In this document: in pieces, positions 7 to 5,870 of the stretch | How positions within the stretch are numbered: the stretch's first letter is position 1 | How the letters are laid out: the number at the start of each line of letters is the position of its first letter | NCBI GenBank assembly: GCA_017432405.1 | Contig: JAFRJF010000269.1 | Span: forward strand, 1-5,870 | Source: Clostridia bacterium | GTDB taxonomy: Bacteria; Bacillota_A; Clostridia; Christensenellales; Aristaeellaceae | DNA: 5,870 nt | Direction of reading: 5' to 3' | Notes under the pieces: generated by a model | What the model was told of the DNA's origin: nothing | Seen by the model: the letters and a program-made list of their open reading frames with translations, nothing else | Databases searched by the model: none | Program-made: the position numbers and the translations under genes

Positions 7-276
7 GCCTCCCAAAGCCTTCCCCAGCGACCGAAGGGAGCGGTTCAGGGGAAGGTGGGCCGCGAAGCGGGTCGGATGAGGTCGGTCCCCCCGCGGTAAC
101 GATGGTTTGCGCGCTTCCTTCCAAGAGAACGACCTCATCCGTCTTTCGGCGACGCGCAGCTAGTCCTTTAGGGCAAAAACGCAAGCGTTTTCACCGAAAT
201 CCACCTTCCGCCCAAGGGCATGGCTACGCACACCCTGAACCGGCAGTTTCGCTGCCTGGGGAAGGCTTTGGGAGGC
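7..276. repeat. Inverted pair of modular intergenic repeat arms (MITE/REP-like)
   Basis: Positions 7-27 and 256-276 are a perfect 21-bp inverted repeat beginning GCCTCCCAAAGCC. Moving inward, the two arms keep the same boxes in the same order: CGGTTCAGGG (41-50, complement 233-242), GGAAGGTGG (50-58, complement 201-209) and CGGATGAGGTCG (73-84, complement 130-141). The gap between the first two boxes is 13 nt in both arms but differs in sequence, and each gap can form a small hairpin. The right arm is longer: it carries extra sequence at 142-200 and 210-232, including the near-palindrome AAAACGCAAGCGTTTT (176-191). The centre (85-129) is not shared. No coding potential is convincing here; a short open frame at 102-314 crosses the repeat boxes and has no recognisable product. 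Mobile-element or REP identity is inference. No clear target-site duplication is visible, and the left end is only six bases from the window edge. Confidence 0.72.
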
Positions 277-386: not shown

Positions 387-3300
387 CTACATGTCTTCGG
401 CTTCTTCGTACGCTTCAGCCTCTTCAGCCTCTTCATACGCCTCAGCCTCTTCATATTCTTCGGCTTCTTCGTACGCCTCGGCCTCTTCGTACGCCTCAGC
501 CTCTTTGTACGCTTCAGCTTCCTCGTAGTCGTCCGCCGCATCGTCGTCGCCCTCGGACGCTTCATCGGGCAACAGGACGGCGCTTGGGTTGGCGTAGCTC
601 TCGTCTGCGTACTTCAGGGCATCCAGCGTGTCGGCGTCAATGATCGGATTCATGGGATCGATCATCGGCAGGTCCAGGTCAAAGGTCTCGTTGCAATAGC
701 TCTGGAAGTCTCTGATGGCATAGACGGTGGCATCGTCCAGCATGCCGGGCATGAAGCTGTCGGCTTCCAGCCAGCCAAGGCTTACCAGCTGGGTTTGCAG
801 CTCGGTGATCTCATCCTCGCTCAGATCGACGCCTTCCGCTTCCTCGGAATCCGCCTCCTCGTCCTCGGGCTCCAGGTATTCCTCTTCACCTTCGGGCTCC
901 TGGTACTCCTCTTCAACCTCAGGCTCCAGGTATTCCTCTTCAGCCTCGGGTTCCTGGAACGCTTCTTCACCCTCAGGTTCCAGGTATTCCTCTTCAGCCT
1001 CGGGTTCCTGGAACGCCTCTTCAACCTCAGGCTCCAGGTATTCCTCCTCGGCCTCGGGCTCCTGGTACTCCTCTTCAACCTCAGGCTCCAGGTATTCCTC
1101 TTCGCCTTCGAGCTCCTGGTATTCCTGCTCGGGCTCAGGCTCCAGGTATTCCTCTTCACCTTCGGGCTCCTGGTACTCCTCCTCGGGCTCAGGCTCCAGA
1201 TATTCCTCTTCGCCTTCGAGCTCCTGGTATTCCTCCTCGGCCTCGGGCTCCTGATATCCCTCTTCGGTCCCAGGCTCTTGGTATTCCTCTTCGCCTTCGA
1301 GCTCCTGGTATTCCTCCTCGGCCTCGGGCTCCCGGTATTCCTCCTCCGCGTCTTCGTCGGCGGCTTCTTCATAGGGCTCGTCGGCGATGACGGCGGCGGG
1401 TGCGGCGGTGTAGAGGGCGAAGCTGGCCGATGCGGTCGCGCCGTCGGCCTCCGATCCGCCCGCGGGTATGGCCGTGACCTTCAGGGTATAGACCTCGTTG
1501 GGGTCCAGTGCGCTGGTATAGGCGGACAGGGATGTGGCTTCGACCGCCCGGGAATCCAGCAGGTTGCCGCTGGAATCCAGCAGCGACACCTGGTATTCCG
1601 CCACGTCGCCCTCGGACTGCCAGGACATGGTCAGGACCTCGCCGGAGACGTAGCTGATGCCTCCCTGCGCTTCTTCCACGGTTTCAAAGTTGATGACCGG
1701 CTCGGTGACGCGCGCGGTTTCCGGCACGTCCGCCTCCAGCGGGATGTCCTCGGGCAACGCCGCCTCCGGTTCCGTCACCTGCGCCTCTGCCGGCTCCACG
1801 GTTTCAGTCTCCTCCGCCGGGAGCTCGACGTCTTCCCCGGCTTCGGGCTCCTCCGCCGGGAGCTCGACGTCTTCCCCGGCTTCAGTCTCCTCCGCCGGGA
1901 GCTCAATGGCCTCCTCGGGCATCGTTTCCTCTGCCGGTGTTTCGCTCAAATCCTCCGGGATGGGTTCGCCCTGTTCCGGTTCGGTCGCCGCTTCGACGGG
2001 CGCATCCTCCACGGGCAATTCCACTGCGGGTTCGATCTCCTGCGCCTCTGAGGATTTCTCTATATCCGCATCGCCTTCGATTTCAACGGGCGAATCCAGG
2101 GTGGGCATGAGCTCGAGCGCCTCCTCGGGCAGCTCGATCTCCTCCTGCCCTTCGATGACCTCGGGGTCATCGATCGGCTCGGGCGTGGGCTCGGGCTCCG
2201 GCTCGGGCGTGGGCTCCGGCGTGGGATCGGGCTCGGGCAGCTCCACCTCGGGCAGGGCGAACTGGACCGAATTGGTGCGGGCGGCCTTCATGTTGCCGTC
2301 CTCCGGTATCGCGGCGACGGAGATGGTGTAGATTTCGCCGGCGCTCATGGCGCTGGAGCTGACGCGGGCAACATGCTCGGGCGTTTCCTGTTCCACGACG
2401 ACCTTGCCGCTCTCGTCCTCGATGCGCACTTCATAGGCGCCCACATCGCCCTCGGCATACCAGTCAAAGGTGATGTCGCCGGGCAACAGGTAATAGACGC
2501 CGCCTTCCGTGCGGCCCACCGAGCTGATGATGATCTCGGGCAGGCCGATGGTTTCGACCTCGATGTCCTCGTCCTCATACGCGGGCTCGATCCTCGCGAA
2601 GTCGATCTCGGCCTGGGTGACGTGCCTGCTGTCGCCGTCCTCGGGGTAGGCCCTGACGCGCAGCGTGTAGGTCTCGTTGAAGTCCAGCGTGGCCAGGGAG
2701 ACGCCGGTGCTGGTCATCAGCGTGTCCTTGTCGATGTACACGTTGCCCTGGGAATCGTTCACGCGGATGCCGTAGTGGTCCACGCTGCCCTCCACATCCC
2801 AGCTGAAGACGACATAGCCGTCCGGGGCGCTCTCCTCGGAGATGAAGTAGACGCCGTCGTCCTCGAAGTCGTATTCCTCGACGTAGATGTCCGGCTCGCC
2901 GATGACGGTGGGCTTTACGTATTCGGGCGCGTCTTCGTCAAACAGCAGCCTCTGGGTGCGCACGGTGGCGATGCCGGTGGGCTTCAGGCCGACCTTCTTC
3001 TGGAAGAGGGCCACGGCCTCCTTGGTCTGCCTGCCGAAGTAGCCGTCCACGGGACCGTCGTAGTAGTTCAGGTCCCTCAGCCGGCGCTGCAGGCGGGCGA
3101 CGCGCTCGTTGTCGTCGCCGCGGCGCAGCACGATGTAGCCGGGCGCCTCGGGGGCGTCGTCGGAGAACAGCAGGCGCTGCATGGCCTGGCTGGCATAGCC
3201 GGTGTCCTTCAGCCCGGCCGTGCGCTGGAATACGCGCACCGCAGAGCTGGTTTCGGAGCTGTAGGTGCTGCCGGGGCTGCTTTCCAGATAGTAGAGGTCC

Positions 3301-4934
3301 CGCAGCCGGTTGTTCAGCTCGCGCACGCGATATCCGGTGTCGCCGGGATACAGGTCGATGTAACTGGAGCAGTGGCTCGCGCCGTCGGAATAGAGGCGCT
3401 TGAGCGTATCCCGGGTGGCGACGCTGGCTTCCGGCAGGCCGTTTTCATACTGGAACAGCTGCACGGCCTTCAACGTGCGGGGGCCGAAAATGCCGTCCGC
3501 CGCGTCGGCCAGGTAGCCCAACTCCCGCAGGCGCTCCTGCATCCGCCGCACGCGCATGCCCCTGTTGCCCCGGGTCAGCTGGAAATAGGGGTCGTAGGCG
3601 CTCAGCCTGCCGGAGAGTATGATGCGCTGCAGCTCGGCGTCGGCGACGCCGGTCACGGTGCGCTCCAGGTCGAACTGCAACAGCTGTACGGCGGCCTGGG
3701 TGCGGGGACCGAATATGCCGTCCACGTAGTAGTCGTAATAGCCCAGGTCCTTCAGCGGCTGCTGGATGGCGCTGACGGCGTCGCCGCGGTTGCCCCTGGA
3801 CAGGGGGGCGTACTGGGGGGTGGGCTTCAGCTGCTCCGAAGCGGTCTGCTCGCCGGCGAGCTTCAGGGTGTCGATCAGCCGCAGCGCGGGCGCGGCCACT
3901 TCGGCCTCCGATTCGAACTCGATGAACGAGAAGGTGGGCTTCGCGGCCTTTTCCACCAGCTGGGCATAGACGTTCAGCTGGCCGCTCATGCCCTCTATGT
4001 ACAGCCCGTCCACATTGTATTCCGCGGGCAGCTTATAGGCCGACAGGTCGGAATAGCGCTTGAATACGCCCAGCGTGCCCTTGGCGGTATCCACCCGGCA
4101 GACGGTGTTGTCGGCGGCCAGCATGAACAGCGACTTGCCGCTGGCGGTCAGCTGGTCCTTCATCTTTACGCCGGGGGTCAGCACGATCTTCGAGGTCTTC
4201 GCCGAGGGATCGTAGGCCTTCAGCCGCAGGGCGCTGCCGGTGCGGGTCAGGTAGTATACGGTGTCGTTCAGCCAGGCGAAGGCGGTCACGTCGCTGTCGA
4301 TCAGGCTGGCGCTGTAGTTGAAGAGGCTCTTCAGGTACAGCTCGGCGTCGTCGGTCAGGTAGATCTCGTAGCGCTCGCCGATGGCGCCGCTCCTGGGCAT
4401 GCCGCCGCTGTAGATCTCAAAGCGGTCGGTGTCCTGGGCGTACAGCATCGTGGCGGCACGGTCCACCAGCTGGAAGACCGGTCCCTCCGCGGACATGTAC
4501 AGCCGGTCGATGGGCTCCGCGGCGGTGTAGACGACCTCGTTCGCCAGGCTGTGCAGGTCGGCGCGGACCAGCTGCTTGCGGTTGGCGCCGGTCACGTAGA
4601 AGGCGGTGTCCTCGTCAGCCAGGCAAGCAGCCGTGACGTCCGCGGCGATCAGGGACTCCTTCAGGCTCTGCAGGTCGACCGCGTACATATCCTGGGTGTC
4701 CAGGAAGTCGTCGGCGCTCATATAGAGCACGCGGTAGGCGTCCATGCCCACCACGCTGCTTGCCGGCTTGGTGTTGATGGCGTCCGCCTTGCCGGTCAGG
4801 TACAGGTGCCCTTCGCCGTCGGTGTAGGCGGCGAAGGCGTCGCTGCGGGCGACGGGGCCGCTCTCTGCCACCGCGAAGGGGGTGGCGAGCAGGCACAGCG
4901 CGAGCAGCAATATGAAAAGTGCTGTTTTCTTCAT
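387..4934 (-). CDS. Giant secreted peptidoglycan-binding repeat protein, 1515 aa, function unknown
   Basis: The start is ATG at 4934, because AGGAGGA (4942-4948) lies 7 nt upstream and the protein then begins with a signal peptide (MKKTALFILLLALCLLATPF, predicted cut after AVA at residue 23). The frame stays open to 5021, but that ATG has no ribosome binding site. Residues 24-331 look like an irregular beta-propeller, perhaps DUF5050-like (weak call). Four PG_binding_1 domains follow at about 375-671, with motifs such as VDGIFGPRT. Ig/Fn3-like domains lie at about 676-796 and 797-898, a Pro/Glu-rich linker at 899-1078, and a third Ig-like domain at 1079-1182. Eighteen Glu/Tyr nonapeptides (1197-1358), a degenerate fifth PG-binding domain (about 1373-1442) and an acidic hexad tail (1470-1515) complete it. 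I see no catalytic domain, LPXTG motif or transmembrane helix beyond the signal. A wall-attached scaffold or spacer is the likeliest role (inference). It appears monocistronic, divergent from spoIIIAA, and ends at a strong terminator. Confidence 0.93.
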   Translation of the reverse strand: MKKTALFILLLALCLLATPFAVAESGPVARSDAFAAYTDGEGHLYLTGKADAINTKPASSVVGMDAYRVLYMSADDFLDTQDMYAVDLQSLKESLIAADVTAACLADEDTAFYVTGANRKQLVRADLHSLANEVVYTAAEPIDRLYMSAEGPVFQLVDRAATMLYAQDTDRFEIYSGGMPRSGAIGERYEIYLTDDAELYLKSLFNYSASLIDSDVTAFAWLNDTVYYLTRTGSALRLKAYDPSAKTSKIVLTPGVKMKDQLTASGKSLFMLAADNTVCRVDTAKGTLGVFKRYSDLSAYKLPAEYNVDGLYIEGMSGQLNVYAQLVEKAAKPTFSFIEFESEAEVAAPALRLIDTLKLAGEQTASEQLKPTPQYAPLSRGNRGDAVSAIQQPLKDLGYYDYYVDGIFGPRTQAAVQLLQFDLERTVTGVADAELQRIILSGRLSAYDPYFQLTRGNRGMRVRRMQERLRELGYLADAADGIFGPRTLKAVQLFQYENGLPEASVATRDTLKRLYSDGASHCSSYIDLYPGDTGYRVRELNNRLRDLYYLESSPGSTYSSETSSAVRVFQRTAGLKDTGYASQAMQRLLFSDDAPEAPGYIVLRRGDDNERVARLQRRLRDLNYYDGPVDGYFGRQTKEAVALFQKKVGLKPTGIATVRTQRLLFDEDAPEYVKPTVIGEPDIYVEEYDFEDDGVYFISEESAPDGYVVFSWDVEGSVDHYGIRVNDSQGNVYIDKDTLMTSTGVSLATLDFNETYTLRVRAYPEDGDSRHVTQAEIDFARIEPAYEDEDIEVETIGLPEIIISSVGRTEGGVYYLLPGDITFDWYAEGDVGAYEVRIEDESGKVVVEQETPEHVARVSSSAMSAGEIYTISVAAIPEDGNMKAARTNSVQFALPEVELPEPDPTPEPTPEPEPEPTPEPIDDPEVIEGQEEIELPEEALELMPTLDSPVEIEGDADIEKSSEAQEIEPAVELPVEDAPVEAATEPEQGEPIPEDLSETPAEETMPEEAIELPAEETEAGEDVELPAEEPEAGEDVELPAEETETVEPAEAQVTEPEAALPEDIPLEADVPETARVTEPVINFETVEEAQGGISYVSGEVLTMSWQSEGDVAEYQVSLLDSSGNLLDSRAVEATSLSAYTSALDPNEVYTLKVTAIPAGGSEADGATASASFALYTAAPAAVIADEPYEEAADEDAEEEYREPEAEEEYQELEGEEEYQEPGTEEGYQEPEAEEEYQELEGEEEYLEPEPEEEYQEPEGEEEYLEPEPEQEYQELEGEEEYLEPEVEEEYQEPEAEEEYLEPEVEEAFQEPEAEEEYLEPEGEEAFQEPEAEEEYLEPEVEEEYQEPEGEEEYLEPEDEEADSEEAEGVDLSEDEITELQTQLVSLGWLEADSFMPGMLDDATVYAIRDFQSYCNETFDLDLPMIDPMNPIIDADTLDALKYADESYANPSAVLLPDEASEGDDDAADDYEEAEAYKEAEAYEEAEAYEEAEEYEEAEAYEEAEEAEAYEEAEDM
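390..527 (-). repeat. C-terminal Glu/Ala/Tyr hexad repeat (18-bp period)
   Basis: The last 46 residues of the large protein (1470-1515) repeat the hexad YEEAEA. Tyrosines fall at 1470, 1476, 1482, 1488, 1494 and 1500, then at 1509 after a 9-residue spacer unit (YEEAEEAEA). One unit has Lys in place of Glu (YKEAEA) and one reads YEEAEE. The DNA shows the matching 18-bp repeat, read on the plus strand as variants of TCGTACGCCTCGGCCTCT. The pattern is likely to be helical or extended and very acidic, and it runs to the stop codon. Confidence 0.9.
861..1346 (-). repeat. 18 tandem Glu/Tyr nonapeptide repeats (27-bp period, 54-bp higher-order unit)
   Basis: The segment is exactly 18 x 27 bp and encodes residues 1197-1358. 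The consensus is EEEY-[Q/L]-EPE-x, where x is A, G, V or P. From unit 5 to unit 18, position 5 alternates strictly Gln, Leu, Gln, Leu, giving seven 18-residue dyads. Units 1-4 carry Arg, Gln, Gln, Gln instead. Tyr is kept in sixteen units and replaced by Phe in units 13 and 15 (EEAF). Units 2, 5 and 9 have QELEG in place of QEPEG. Each unit carries about five Glu and no Lys; the only Arg is in unit 1. Recent tandem duplication of 54-bp dyads explains the pattern. Confidence 0.95.
1812..1904 (-). repeat. 39-bp direct repeats in the Pro/Glu linker
   Basis: Two adjacent 39-bp units (1812-1850 and 1851-1889) are almost identical, and a third begins at 1890 and stays identical for 15 bases. They encode the 13-residue unit ELPAEETEAGEDV within the linker that joins the second and third Ig-like domains. 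The near-identity at DNA level suggests a young duplication. The linker also holds a PTPEP/PEPEP run at about residues 902-922, of the kind found in wall-spanning segments. Confidence 0.88.
2922..3812 (-). repeat. Four tandem PG_binding_1 domains, 75-residue period
   Basis: The domains start at the equivalent tyrosines Y375, Y450, Y525 and Y600, a constant spacing of 75 residues (225 bp). Each follows the PG_binding_1 plan: [L]xxGxxxxxVxxLQxxLxxLGYY, then VDGxFGxxTxxAVxxFQ, then a helix ending near RLLF. Domains 1, 2 and 4 keep the DG-x-FG turn (DGIFGPRT, DGIFGPRT, DGYFGRQT). Domain 3 has lost it (SSPGSTYSSET). Domains 3 and 4 share the closing motif RLLF followed by an acidic DAPE stretch. 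This family is known to bind cell-wall peptidoglycan; binding by these copies is inferred. Confidence 0.92.
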
Positions 4935-4941
4935 GGTCCGG

Positions 4942-4948
4942 TCCTCCT
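4942..4948 (-). promoter_or_regulatory. Ribosome binding site deciding the start of the large gene
   Basis: On the minus strand this reads AGGAGGA, a near-perfect anti-Shine-Dalgarno match, 7 nt before the ATG at 4934. It fixes the start there rather than at the in-frame ATG at 5021, which has no such site and would bury the signal peptide. Confidence 0.9.
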
Positions 4949-4972
4949 GATGATGATACTGCTTGGACGTAA

Positions 4973-5002
4973 TTGAGGCGCTTCTGGTTCCAAAATTATA
5001 AA
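4973..5002 (+). promoter_or_regulatory. Weak candidate promoter for spoIIIAA
   Basis: TTGAGG (4973-4978) and TATAAA (4997-5002) are separated by 18 nt and resemble a vegetative-type promoter facing spoIIIAA. Its -10 shares the TTATAA core with the opposing -10 box. The spoIIIA operon is sigma-E controlled in Bacillus subtilis. A sigma-E-like -10 (CATAGGAT, 5039-5046) exists closer to the gene, but it has no convincing -35 partner because the expected place is filled by the GC palindrome. I cannot choose between them from sequence alone. Confidence 0.25.
4995..5000 (-). promoter_or_regulatory. Candidate -10 box for the large gene
   Basis: The minus strand reads TATAAT here, an exact sigma-A type -10 box, about 60 nt upstream of the ATG. 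No good TTGACA-like -35 lies 16-18 nt further upstream. A TG lies one base too far upstream (TGTTTATAAT) for a standard extended -10. The box is one of the few AT-rich spots in this intergenic region. Confidence 0.45.
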
Positions 5003-5068: not shown

Positions 5069-5870
5069 ATGGGGGCTGTGGACAGGCTGAAGGGGCTGCT
5101 GCCCCCGGGCGCGGCTGCGCTGCTGGCGGCCTGCGGGGATGGGGTGACCCAGGTTCGGCTGCGCGTCGGCAGGCCCATGCAGGTCTGCATGGGCAGCGGG
5201 GGCGAGGCGCTGTCCGACGAACCGCTGGAGCGGGCGACGCTGGAGCGCATACTGGCTGCGCTGATGGAATACAGCGTCTATGCCCGCCAGGACGAGCTGG
5301 ACCAGGGCTTTTTCACCCTGGACGACGGCAGCCGCGTGGGGGTCTGCGGCAGGATGGTCGGGGACGGGACCCGGTTTCGAATGGACGGGATCGGCTCGGC
5401 CTGCCTGCGCGTCGCCAGGCCGGTGGCCGGGTGCGCCAGCGGGCTGCTCGCCCACATCGCGCCAACCAGGGACGTTCTGCGCTCGACGCTGCTGCTGTCG
5501 CCGCCGGGGCTGGGCAAGACCACGATGCTGCGGGACATTGCCCGCCAGCTGTCCGACGGCGGCCTGTGCGTGGCCGTTGTGGACGAGCGACACGAGCTGG
5601 CCGCCTGCCACATGGGCGTTCCCACGCTGGACGTGGGGCTGCGCACGGACGTGATGGACGGCTGCCCCAGGGACCGGGCCATCGGGCGAATGCTTCGGGC
5701 GATGGCGCCACAGGTGGTCGTTGCGGATGAGATCGGCGGCGCGGAGGACGCCCTGGCCCTGGCTGACGCCGCGCGCTGCGGCGCGGCCATCGTGGCCTCT
5801 GCCCATGCCGCGAGCCTCGGCGAAGCGCTGTCCCGACCCAGCCTGCGCGCGGTGCTGGATGCGGGGGTCG
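5069..5870 (+). CDS. spoIIIAA: Stage III sporulation protein AA, ATPase (partial, 3' end beyond window)
   Basis: SpoIIIAA is the secretion-type ATPase of the SpoIIIA-SpoIIQ complex, which links mother cell and forespore and supports forespore development after engulfment (family knowledge). The visible 267 residues show the family landmarks: an N-terminal region with LRVGRPM (31-37), the P-loop SPPGLGKTTMLRD (144-156, catalytic Lys150), VDERHELAA (171-179), RTDVMDGCP (192-200), the Walker B segment VVVADE (216-221), and the SAH motif (244-246). The P-loop begins with Ser rather than the Gly/Ala of the textbook Walker A pattern; I recall this form from other clostridial members, so I do not read it as inactivating. 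Family members are usually about 300-340 residues, so only the C-terminal tail is missing. The rest of a spoIIIA operon is expected just to the right. The divergent neighbour is the large wall-binding protein. Confidence 0.95.
   Translation, partial: MGAVDRLKGLLPPGAAALLAACGDGVTQVRLRVGRPMQVCMGSGGEALSDEPLERATLERILAALMEYSVYARQDELDQGFFTLDDGSRVGVCGRMVGDGTRFRMDGIGSACLRVARPVAGCASGLLAHIAPTRDVLRSTLLLSPPGLGKTTMLRDIARQLSDGGLCVAVVDERHELAACHMGVPTLDVGLRTDVMDGCPRDRAIGRMLRAMAPQVVVADEIGGAEDALALADAARCGAAIVASAHAASLGEALSRPSLRAVLDAGV

What the first reader, a model, noticed from the sequence alone, without database searches (positions are those of the whole stretch)
387..4934. Unfamiliar giant architecture: signal, propeller-like region, 4+1 PG-binding domains, 3 Ig-like domains and two Glu/Tyr repeat tracts
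The domain order is seen directly. PG_binding_1 domains usually accompany a hydrolase, but no catalytic domain is visible in 1515 residues. Peptidoglycan binding at the middle and near the C-terminus, joined by long acidic spacers, suggests a wall-spanning scaffold or cross-bridge (inference). I do not recognise the whole as a named family.
Basis: partly seen in the sequence, partly recalled or inferred. Interest (0 to 1): 0.72.

Follow-up and report, generated by a model that had tools for sequence, protein, structure and literature searches.

The report
Stress-type promoter drives cell-wall scaffold protein
Some gut and rumen Clostridia carry a giant, very acidic secreted protein that looks built to hold on to the cell wall without cutting it, and its gene has a strikingly conserved promoter of the kind bacteria often use to look after their envelope.

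Summary
ORF 387-4934 (-) encodes 1515 aa: signal peptide, beta-propeller of about seven blades (AlphaFold2 pLDDT 85.9), four tandem PG_binding_1 domains, two Fn3, disordered Pro/Glu spacer, Fn3, disordered Glu/Tyr tract, a fifth PG_binding_1 domain, acidic tail; net charge -270. No enzyme domain was found. It belongs to a conserved, unnamed family: 42 homologues in one search, 28 loci in 28 genomes titled Clostridiales, Clostridia or Firmicutes.

The unexpected result is upstream. All 28 readable promoters (window plus 27 of 28 loci) have GGAAC-N17-CGTCNAA, an ECF-sigma-type promoter. It persists in different gene neighbourhoods and in 14 of 19 readable divergent relatives. In seven genomes the motif occurs 55 times (reversed pattern 9); 35 of 55 sit just upstream of a secreted-looking protein, suggesting an envelope regulon with vWA lipoprotein, VanW and SH3b proteins. 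A sigmaE-like ECF factor matched in 28 of 28 genomes is the candidate regulator, unproven.

Most likely: an ECF-controlled, non-catalytic, wall-bound acidic scaffold.

The parts
387..4934 (-). Giant secreted wall-binding protein, 1515 aa
   Evidence: ORF; Pfam; homologues
4963..4991 (-). ECF-sigma-type promoter GGAAC-N17-CGTCCAA, 28 nt upstream of the ATG
   Evidence: conserved in 28 of 28 readable sequences (window + 27 of 28 loci; one locus reads N)
4943..4948 (-). Ribosome-binding site AGGAGG
   Evidence: sequence
4866..4934 (-). Signal peptide (residues 1-23), by eye
   Evidence: sequence; similar N-termini in homologues
3951..4859 (-). Beta-propeller, about seven blades (residues 26-328)
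3636..3809 (-). PG_binding_1 domain 1 (about residues 376-433)
   Evidence: Pfam; 78% identity across family
3411..3584 (-). PG_binding_1 domain 2 (about 451-508)
   Evidence: Pfam; 77%
3180..3359 (-). PG_binding_1 domain 3 (about 526-585)
   Evidence: Pfam; 74%
2943..3125 (-). PG_binding_1 domain 4 (about 604-664), closest solved relative the SleB wall-binding domain 6tci
   Evidence: Pfam; 75%
2580..2909 (-). Fn3 domain 1 (676-785)
   Evidence: Pfam; model
2250..2552 (-). Fn3 domain 2 (795-895)
   Evidence: Pfam; model
1710..2249 (-). Disordered Pro/Glu spacer (896-1075)
   Evidence: mostly pLDDT under 50; 27% identity and 36% gaps across family
1410..1709 (-). Fn3 domain 3 (1076-1175)
   Evidence: third fn3 stretch; alone 21.8 bits, below cut-off; confident model
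840..1400 (-). Disordered Glu/Tyr repeat tract (1179-1365), 27/54-nt tandem repeats
   Evidence: TRF; 53% acidic
600..827 (-). PG_binding_1 domain 5 (about 1370-1445)
   Evidence: Pfam 23.4 bits; helical model
390..599 (-). Acidic C-terminal tail (1446-1515), part modelled as a helix
5069..5869 (+). Divergent neighbour spoIIIAA (cut by the window end); context, not part of the protein
   Evidence: PF19568 199.3 bits; same neighbour in 16 of 28 loci

Best explanation
A secreted, non-catalytic, cell-wall-bound scaffold made under an ECF sigma factor. Shown by computation: the domain order, the propeller model, the lack of a recognised enzyme domain, the conservation of the wall-binding block, and the invariant ECF-type promoter. 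Inferred: the protein is exported, the four tandem PG_binding_1 domains hold it on peptidoglycan, the propeller is displayed as a binding head for an unknown partner, and the disordered polyacidic spacers (net charge -270) reach to a fifth wall-binding domain, so that one molecule can span or cross-tie the wall and add a flexible anionic layer. Its synthesis is part of an envelope homeostasis response with other secreted proteins (YfbK-type vWA lipoprotein, VanW, SH3b). The likely regulator is the sigmaE-like ECF factor matched in every one of the 28 genomes examined, with a zf-HC2 protein downstream (tested in one genome) as its probable anti-sigma factor.
For: Domains. Conservation: wall-binding domains 1-4 74-78% identity, propeller 61%, spacers 26-27% with 36-39% gaps (35 members over 1100 aa). 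No enzyme domain among Pfam hits of the window protein or of four homologues scanned whole, nor recognised in the accession lists of 57 homologues (limits in the full report). Promoter: 26 of 29 strict GGAAC-N17-CGTC[TC]AA, two more with CGTCAAA, one unreadable (Ns); spacer 17 in all 28; all 25 hits with spacer 16-18 in L001-L028 (895 kb, both strands) lie at this gene. Different neighbourhoods. Divergent relatives: 14 of 19 readable with GGAAC-N17-CGTC. Regulon: 55 motif hits in seven genomes against 9 for the reversed pattern; spacing control N15 gives 1 hit against 26 in the same three genomes; 35 of 55 hits precede an RBS plus signal-peptide-like start against 38 of 2200 random anchors. 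Sigma candidate: 28 of 28 genomes, 64-100% identity, two of them fragments; related to sigma-E 1or7, 113.6 bits.
Against: No binding, localisation or transcription data. The candidate sigma gene shows no such motif upstream in the three genomes read and has a TATAAT stretch, so autoregulation, common among ECF factors (recalled), is not seen; another ECF group (L080/L081/L082) is shared by the same three genomes. 20 of 55 motif hits do not meet the secreted-gene test. Five of 19 readable divergent relatives lack the exact motif: L141 has GGAAC-N16-CGTC, L130, L131 and L133 have AAC-N16-CGTC with other bases before it, L129 has none seen. The fifth wall-binding domain scores barely above the Pfam cut-off. 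Four divergent relatives (L142-L145) show no match to the family Fn3 model, so the C-terminal half is not universal. 199 of 250 sampled genomes of the wider family have no match to the propeller, so the protein is dispensable to that family as a whole.
Confidence: 0.62

Rival explanations
1. A sporulation protein: a cortex-binding scaffold or organiser made in the mother cell or forespore, using SleB-like wall-binding domains next to the spoIIIA operon.
For: spoIIIAA lies divergently beside it in the window and in 16 of 28 loci; domain 4 is closest to the SleB wall-binding domain 6tci and the SleB model matches four stretches.
Against: 10 of 28 loci have a different upstream neighbour and the same promoter; the promoter is of ECF type and not like those of the sporulation sigmas (their consensuses recalled, not tested by a call); the SleB match is confined to the wall-binding part and below cut-off (172.7 against 236.5).
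Confidence: 0.12
2. A regulator or inhibitor of wall hydrolases: the propeller binds a hydrolase and the wall-binding domains deliver it, as an accessory and not a structural protein.
For: Propellers are common protein-binding platforms (one search lists BamB, WD40 and others); the motif is shared with other envelope genes.
Against: No partner identified; the large variable acidic spacers are not explained by it.
Confidence: 0.15
3. A surface adhesin: a wall-anchored stalk with Fn3 domains that shows the propeller to plant fibre, host mucus or other cells.
For: Gut sources in 7 of 28 titles and the RUG series in 19 (RUG read as rumen, recalled); Fn3 arrays and long spacers; 2 to 7 Fn3 matches in 13 of 20 divergent relatives.
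Against: The four wall-binding domains sit next to the propeller, which would hold the head close to the wall; no target known.
Confidence: 0.1

Closest known systems
DUF5050-type clostridial propeller (PDB 3s25, EUBREC_1955)
   Same: Best Foldseek match of the propeller (E 6.7e-10), titled a seven-bladed propeller from Eubacterium rectale; weak DUF5050 matches in the window protein (16.3 bits) and in relatives (up to 24.1 bits, P0045)
   Different: About 10% identity; DUF5050 stays below its cut-off of 27 in each; no wall-binding block or spacers in the 295-residue 3s25 chain
SleB spore cortex-lytic enzyme, wall-binding domain (6tci, 4fet)
   Same: PG_binding_1 domain 4 matches it by sequence (6tci E 4.6e-08)
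   Different: No SleB catalytic part matched; five wall-binding domains; below the NCBIfam cut-off
Promoter of the ECF factor Tt-RpoE1 of Thermoanaerobacter tengcongensis (PMC3397946)
   Same: CGTC -10 element required by an ECF factor (passages read)
   Different: -35 there is tGTTAC, here GGAAC, as in the E. coli sigmaE element GGAACTT quoted in the same paper; there it drives the sigma gene itself

Membership tests
PG_binding_1 wall-binding proteins | Pfam PF01471 above cut-off | tested here: met
   198.7 bits, five stretches
PG_binding_1 wall-binding proteins | binds peptidoglycan | not testable with these tools
   needs a pull-down
Peptidoglycan hydrolase | a catalytic domain | tested here: not met
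   none in Pfam; the best stretches of the listed NCBIfam hydrolase models lie in the wall-binding region, below cut-off
SleB spore cortex-lytic enzyme | NCBIfam TIGR02869 above 236.5 bits, with the catalytic part | tested here: not met
   172.7 bits over four stretches; the best covers model positions 5-68 of 201
DUF5050 | Pfam PF16472 above 27 bits | tested here: not met
   16.3 bits; relatives up to 24.1; similar fold
Sortase- or SLH-anchored surface protein | LPXTG anchor or SLH domains | tested here: not met
   none in Pfam; the C-terminus is an acidic tail
ECF-sigma regulon member | conserved ECF-type promoter at a fixed distance | tested here: met
   28 of 28 readable, spacer 17 throughout
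ECF-sigma regulon member | transcription depends on the ECF factor | not testable with these tools
   needs RNA data
ECF-sigma regulon member | motif shared with other envelope genes and with the sigma gene itself | tested here: inconclusive
   shared with secreted-looking genes (35 of 55); not seen at the candidate sigma gene in three genomes

The most novel reading that the evidence does not exclude
The protein is the lead effector of an ECF envelope-stress response in a group of Clostridia and acts as a protein polyanion: a wall-clamped, teichoic-acid-like acidic polymer, encoded by a gene, that binds cations and cross-ties the wall when the envelope is damaged.
Probability: 0.15. Interest if true: 0.75.

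Novelty: new variant of a known kind. Interest (0 to 1): 0.52.

Why it matters
Every module is known, but this arrangement has no named family in the libraries searched, is kept over wide divergence, and carries a promoter that is almost invariant. It gives an anchor for what looks like an unstudied ECF regulon in uncultured gut and rumen Clostridia, predicts its members from sequence, and makes a specific question testable: whether these bacteria reinforce the wall with an acidic protein under envelope stress.

Tried and rejected
Viral contigs: 4 stretches matched a pattern, none confirmed as a relative. Rfam (gathering threshold) and tRNA scans of the window: nothing. No whole genome is held for the window. 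Sigma70-type promoter scan of the window: 0 found; terminator-like sites at chance level. A TATAAT-like stretch at -66 in the window was dropped because it is not conserved in the other loci. Long open frames on the other strand (for example 2373-4976 +, 867 aa) were taken as by-products of GC content and repeats, not as genes, without a test. My first automatic gene calls and first sigma-frame picks (in part) were unreliable in this GC-rich DNA and were replaced by tblastn and by frames with sigma region 4. In one search two start picks failed (L127, L128) and L146 was read in the wrong one of two frames split by a run of Ns; searches corrected the promoter reading, so the count is 14 of 19, not the 12 that alone shows. 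The repeat-like stretch at 1-300 was sought in L001-L028: no match at E 1e-5. Papers: propeller + PG binding + Fn3 + Clostridia (0 papers); spoIIIAA context (9 listed, none opened); ECF + VanW + PG-binding (1 listed, not opened); ECF promoter terms (searches listed); DUF5050 (3 listed, none opened); rumen Clostridiales envelope stress. Only PMC3397946 was opened, by passages. The host family was not named.

Full report

Family. One protein search with the propeller found 42 proteins, a second from the most divergent locus 15. In the precomputed Pfam accession lists of these 57 I recognise no catalytic domain; most names there are from recall. Four of them with unusual accessions were scanned whole: PG_binding, fn3 and fn3-like models, GH85_C (named a C-terminal domain, overlapping an fn3 match, not the catalytic one) and weak others; PF22433 and PF26586, listed in the precomputed data, did not come up in that scan and were not identified. 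In the species collection 28 of 81 pattern matches were confirmed as relatives, in 28 different genomes. Titles: 19 of the RUG series (rumen uncultured genomes, recalled), 7 RGIG isolates with sheep, goat or roe deer gut sites in the title, one S12M isolate and one ADurb.Bin467; all titled Clostridiales, Clostridia or Firmicutes. In four genomes searched whole, each had one match. In a sample of 250 genomes of the family of G001, 51 had a match at E 0.001 or better, 6 of these with two matches, and 199 had none. Of the 51, 19 were already among my 28; of the 32 others I fetched 20, leaving out 12, mostly weak matches. All 20 match the propeller model (two of them only from residue 118 or 130 on); 17 of 20 show four or five wall-binding domains, the other three loci ending at a contig end within or soon after the block; 13 of 20 match the Fn3 model.

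Conservation (35 members over 1100 aa). Wall-binding domains 1-4: 74-78% identity to the window; propeller 61%; Fn3 47-58%; fifth wall-binding domain 41%; spacers 26-27% with 36-39% gaps; tail 12%. Net charge is -270 in the window and -74 to -248 in the 35 (some may be cut). The best-kept parts are the wall-binding block and the propeller, while the spacers keep composition and not sequence.

Promoter. Upstream of the start, the window and 25 of 28 loci carry GGAAC-N17-CGTC[TC]AA; L005 and L012 carry CGTCAAA; L006 reads N. The spacer is 17 in every one, and the distance to the start is 28-32 nt in 23 of the 26 strict cases and 39, 40 and 58 in the rest. In all of L001-L028 (895 kb counting both strands) the pattern with spacer 16-18 occurs 25 times, every time at this gene. 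It holds where spoIIIAA is the divergent neighbour (16 of 28 loci), where the upstream neighbour is a gene that I read as single-stranded-DNA-binding-like (10 of 28, in L008 and L011 about 2 kb away; my reading, no family search), and in L010 and L027, which showed neither (L010 has 1.7 kb before its contig end and shares the downstream genes of the first group). Of the 20 divergent loci, L135 lacks the start; of 19 readable, 14 have GGAAC-N17-CGTC, L141 has GGAAC-N16-CGTC, L130 GAAAC-N16-CGTC, L131 and L133 GCAAC-N16-CGTC by eye, and L129 none seen. A -35 of GGAAC with a -10 of CGTC is of the ECF kind: PMC3397946 (passages) reports CGTC as the required -10 element of Tt-RpoE1 and cites GGAACTT as the E. 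coli sigmaE -35 element.

Regulon. The strict motif ending in CGTCTAA is rare: in nine genomes it gave 9 different places, 7 of them at this gene and two others (L034, L037); G001 and G008 missed their own gene there because it reads CGTCCAA. With GGAAC-N17-CGTCNAA, seven genomes give 12, 7, 7, 7, 6, 9 and 7 hits (G001, G002, G004, G003, G006, G007, G009), 55 in all; the reversed pattern gives 9. Changing the spacer to 15 gives 1 hit in the three genomes where 17 gives 26. A start codon with an SD-like stretch and a signal-peptide-like N-terminus lies 10-70 nt downstream in 35 of 55 hits (28 of 48 without the giant gene itself), at 24-49 nt in fact, against 38 of 2200 random anchors in the same loci. 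The signal-peptide test is a simple hydrophobicity rule of mine, and orthologues in related genomes are not independent. Some of the other 20 hits look like coding or chance matches (for example L043, before an rpoD-like frame). Recurring genes: the giant protein (7 of 7 genomes), a vWA/YfbK-type lipoprotein (6 of 7), VanW (4 of 7), and smaller sets. Pfam names for one example each: YfbK_C and vWF_A (L048), VanW (L047), SH3_3 (L034), PG_binding_1 (L061); L051 and L060 have none at E 0.01.

Which sigma. The three genomes searched for Sigma70_r2 have 15, 16 and 8 matches. One ECF factor, with a zf-HC2 protein downstream in G002, has a 64-100% identical match in 28 of 28 genomes (in G025 and G027 only part of it), while other listed matches reach at most 39%, apart from a second piece in G025; the list was cut. 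It is related to sigma-E 1or7 (113.6 bits), sigma-H 6in7 and SigE chains, and in the five alignments shown, which do not include 1or7, its K-S-R stretch of region 4 lies over R-S-R. Against it: no GGAAC motif lies upstream of this gene in G001, G002 or G004, where a TATAAT stretch is seen, and another ECF group is shared by the same three genomes. So the assignment is a proposal.

Reading. The protein has no recognised enzyme, the wall-binding block is its best-kept part, and it is preceded by an envelope-type promoter shared with other secreted-looking proteins. A wall-bound scaffold in an envelope response is the simplest account. The spoIIIA neighbour suggested sporulation, but the promoter stays when the neighbour changes. 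The protein-polyanion idea rests only on charge and is marked as the bold reading.

Noticed in passing
window 7-50 and 233-276: Inverted repeat with 44-nt arms, 82% complementary, 182 nt apart, downstream of the gene; looks like a mobile or structural element. No match in L001-L028 at E 1e-5.
   Followed up: partly
window 5069-5869 (+): spoIIIAA (recalled as the first gene of the spoIIIA sporulation operon), cut by the window end and divergent from the giant gene.
   Followed up: partly
L048, L050, L100, L105, L106, L115: vWA/YfbK-type lipoprotein with the same ECF-type motif upstream in six of seven genomes (Pfam on L048 only; orthologue set): second core member of the putative regulon.
   Followed up: partly
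L047, L056, L104, L118: VanW-type secreted protein with the motif upstream in four of seven genomes (Pfam on L047 only).
   Followed up: partly
L067, L068, L076 around 1100-1400: The sigmaE-like ECF gene is preceded in all three genomes by what I read as a tRNA gene on the other strand (not scanned; sequence); in L068 the ORF before it looks like a PG-binding protein (not scanned).
   Followed up: no
P0044: A relative has SH3 domains in its Pfam list and ends in a Pro/Thr-rich repeat tail in place of the acidic tract, so the far end can use another kind of module.
   Followed up: no
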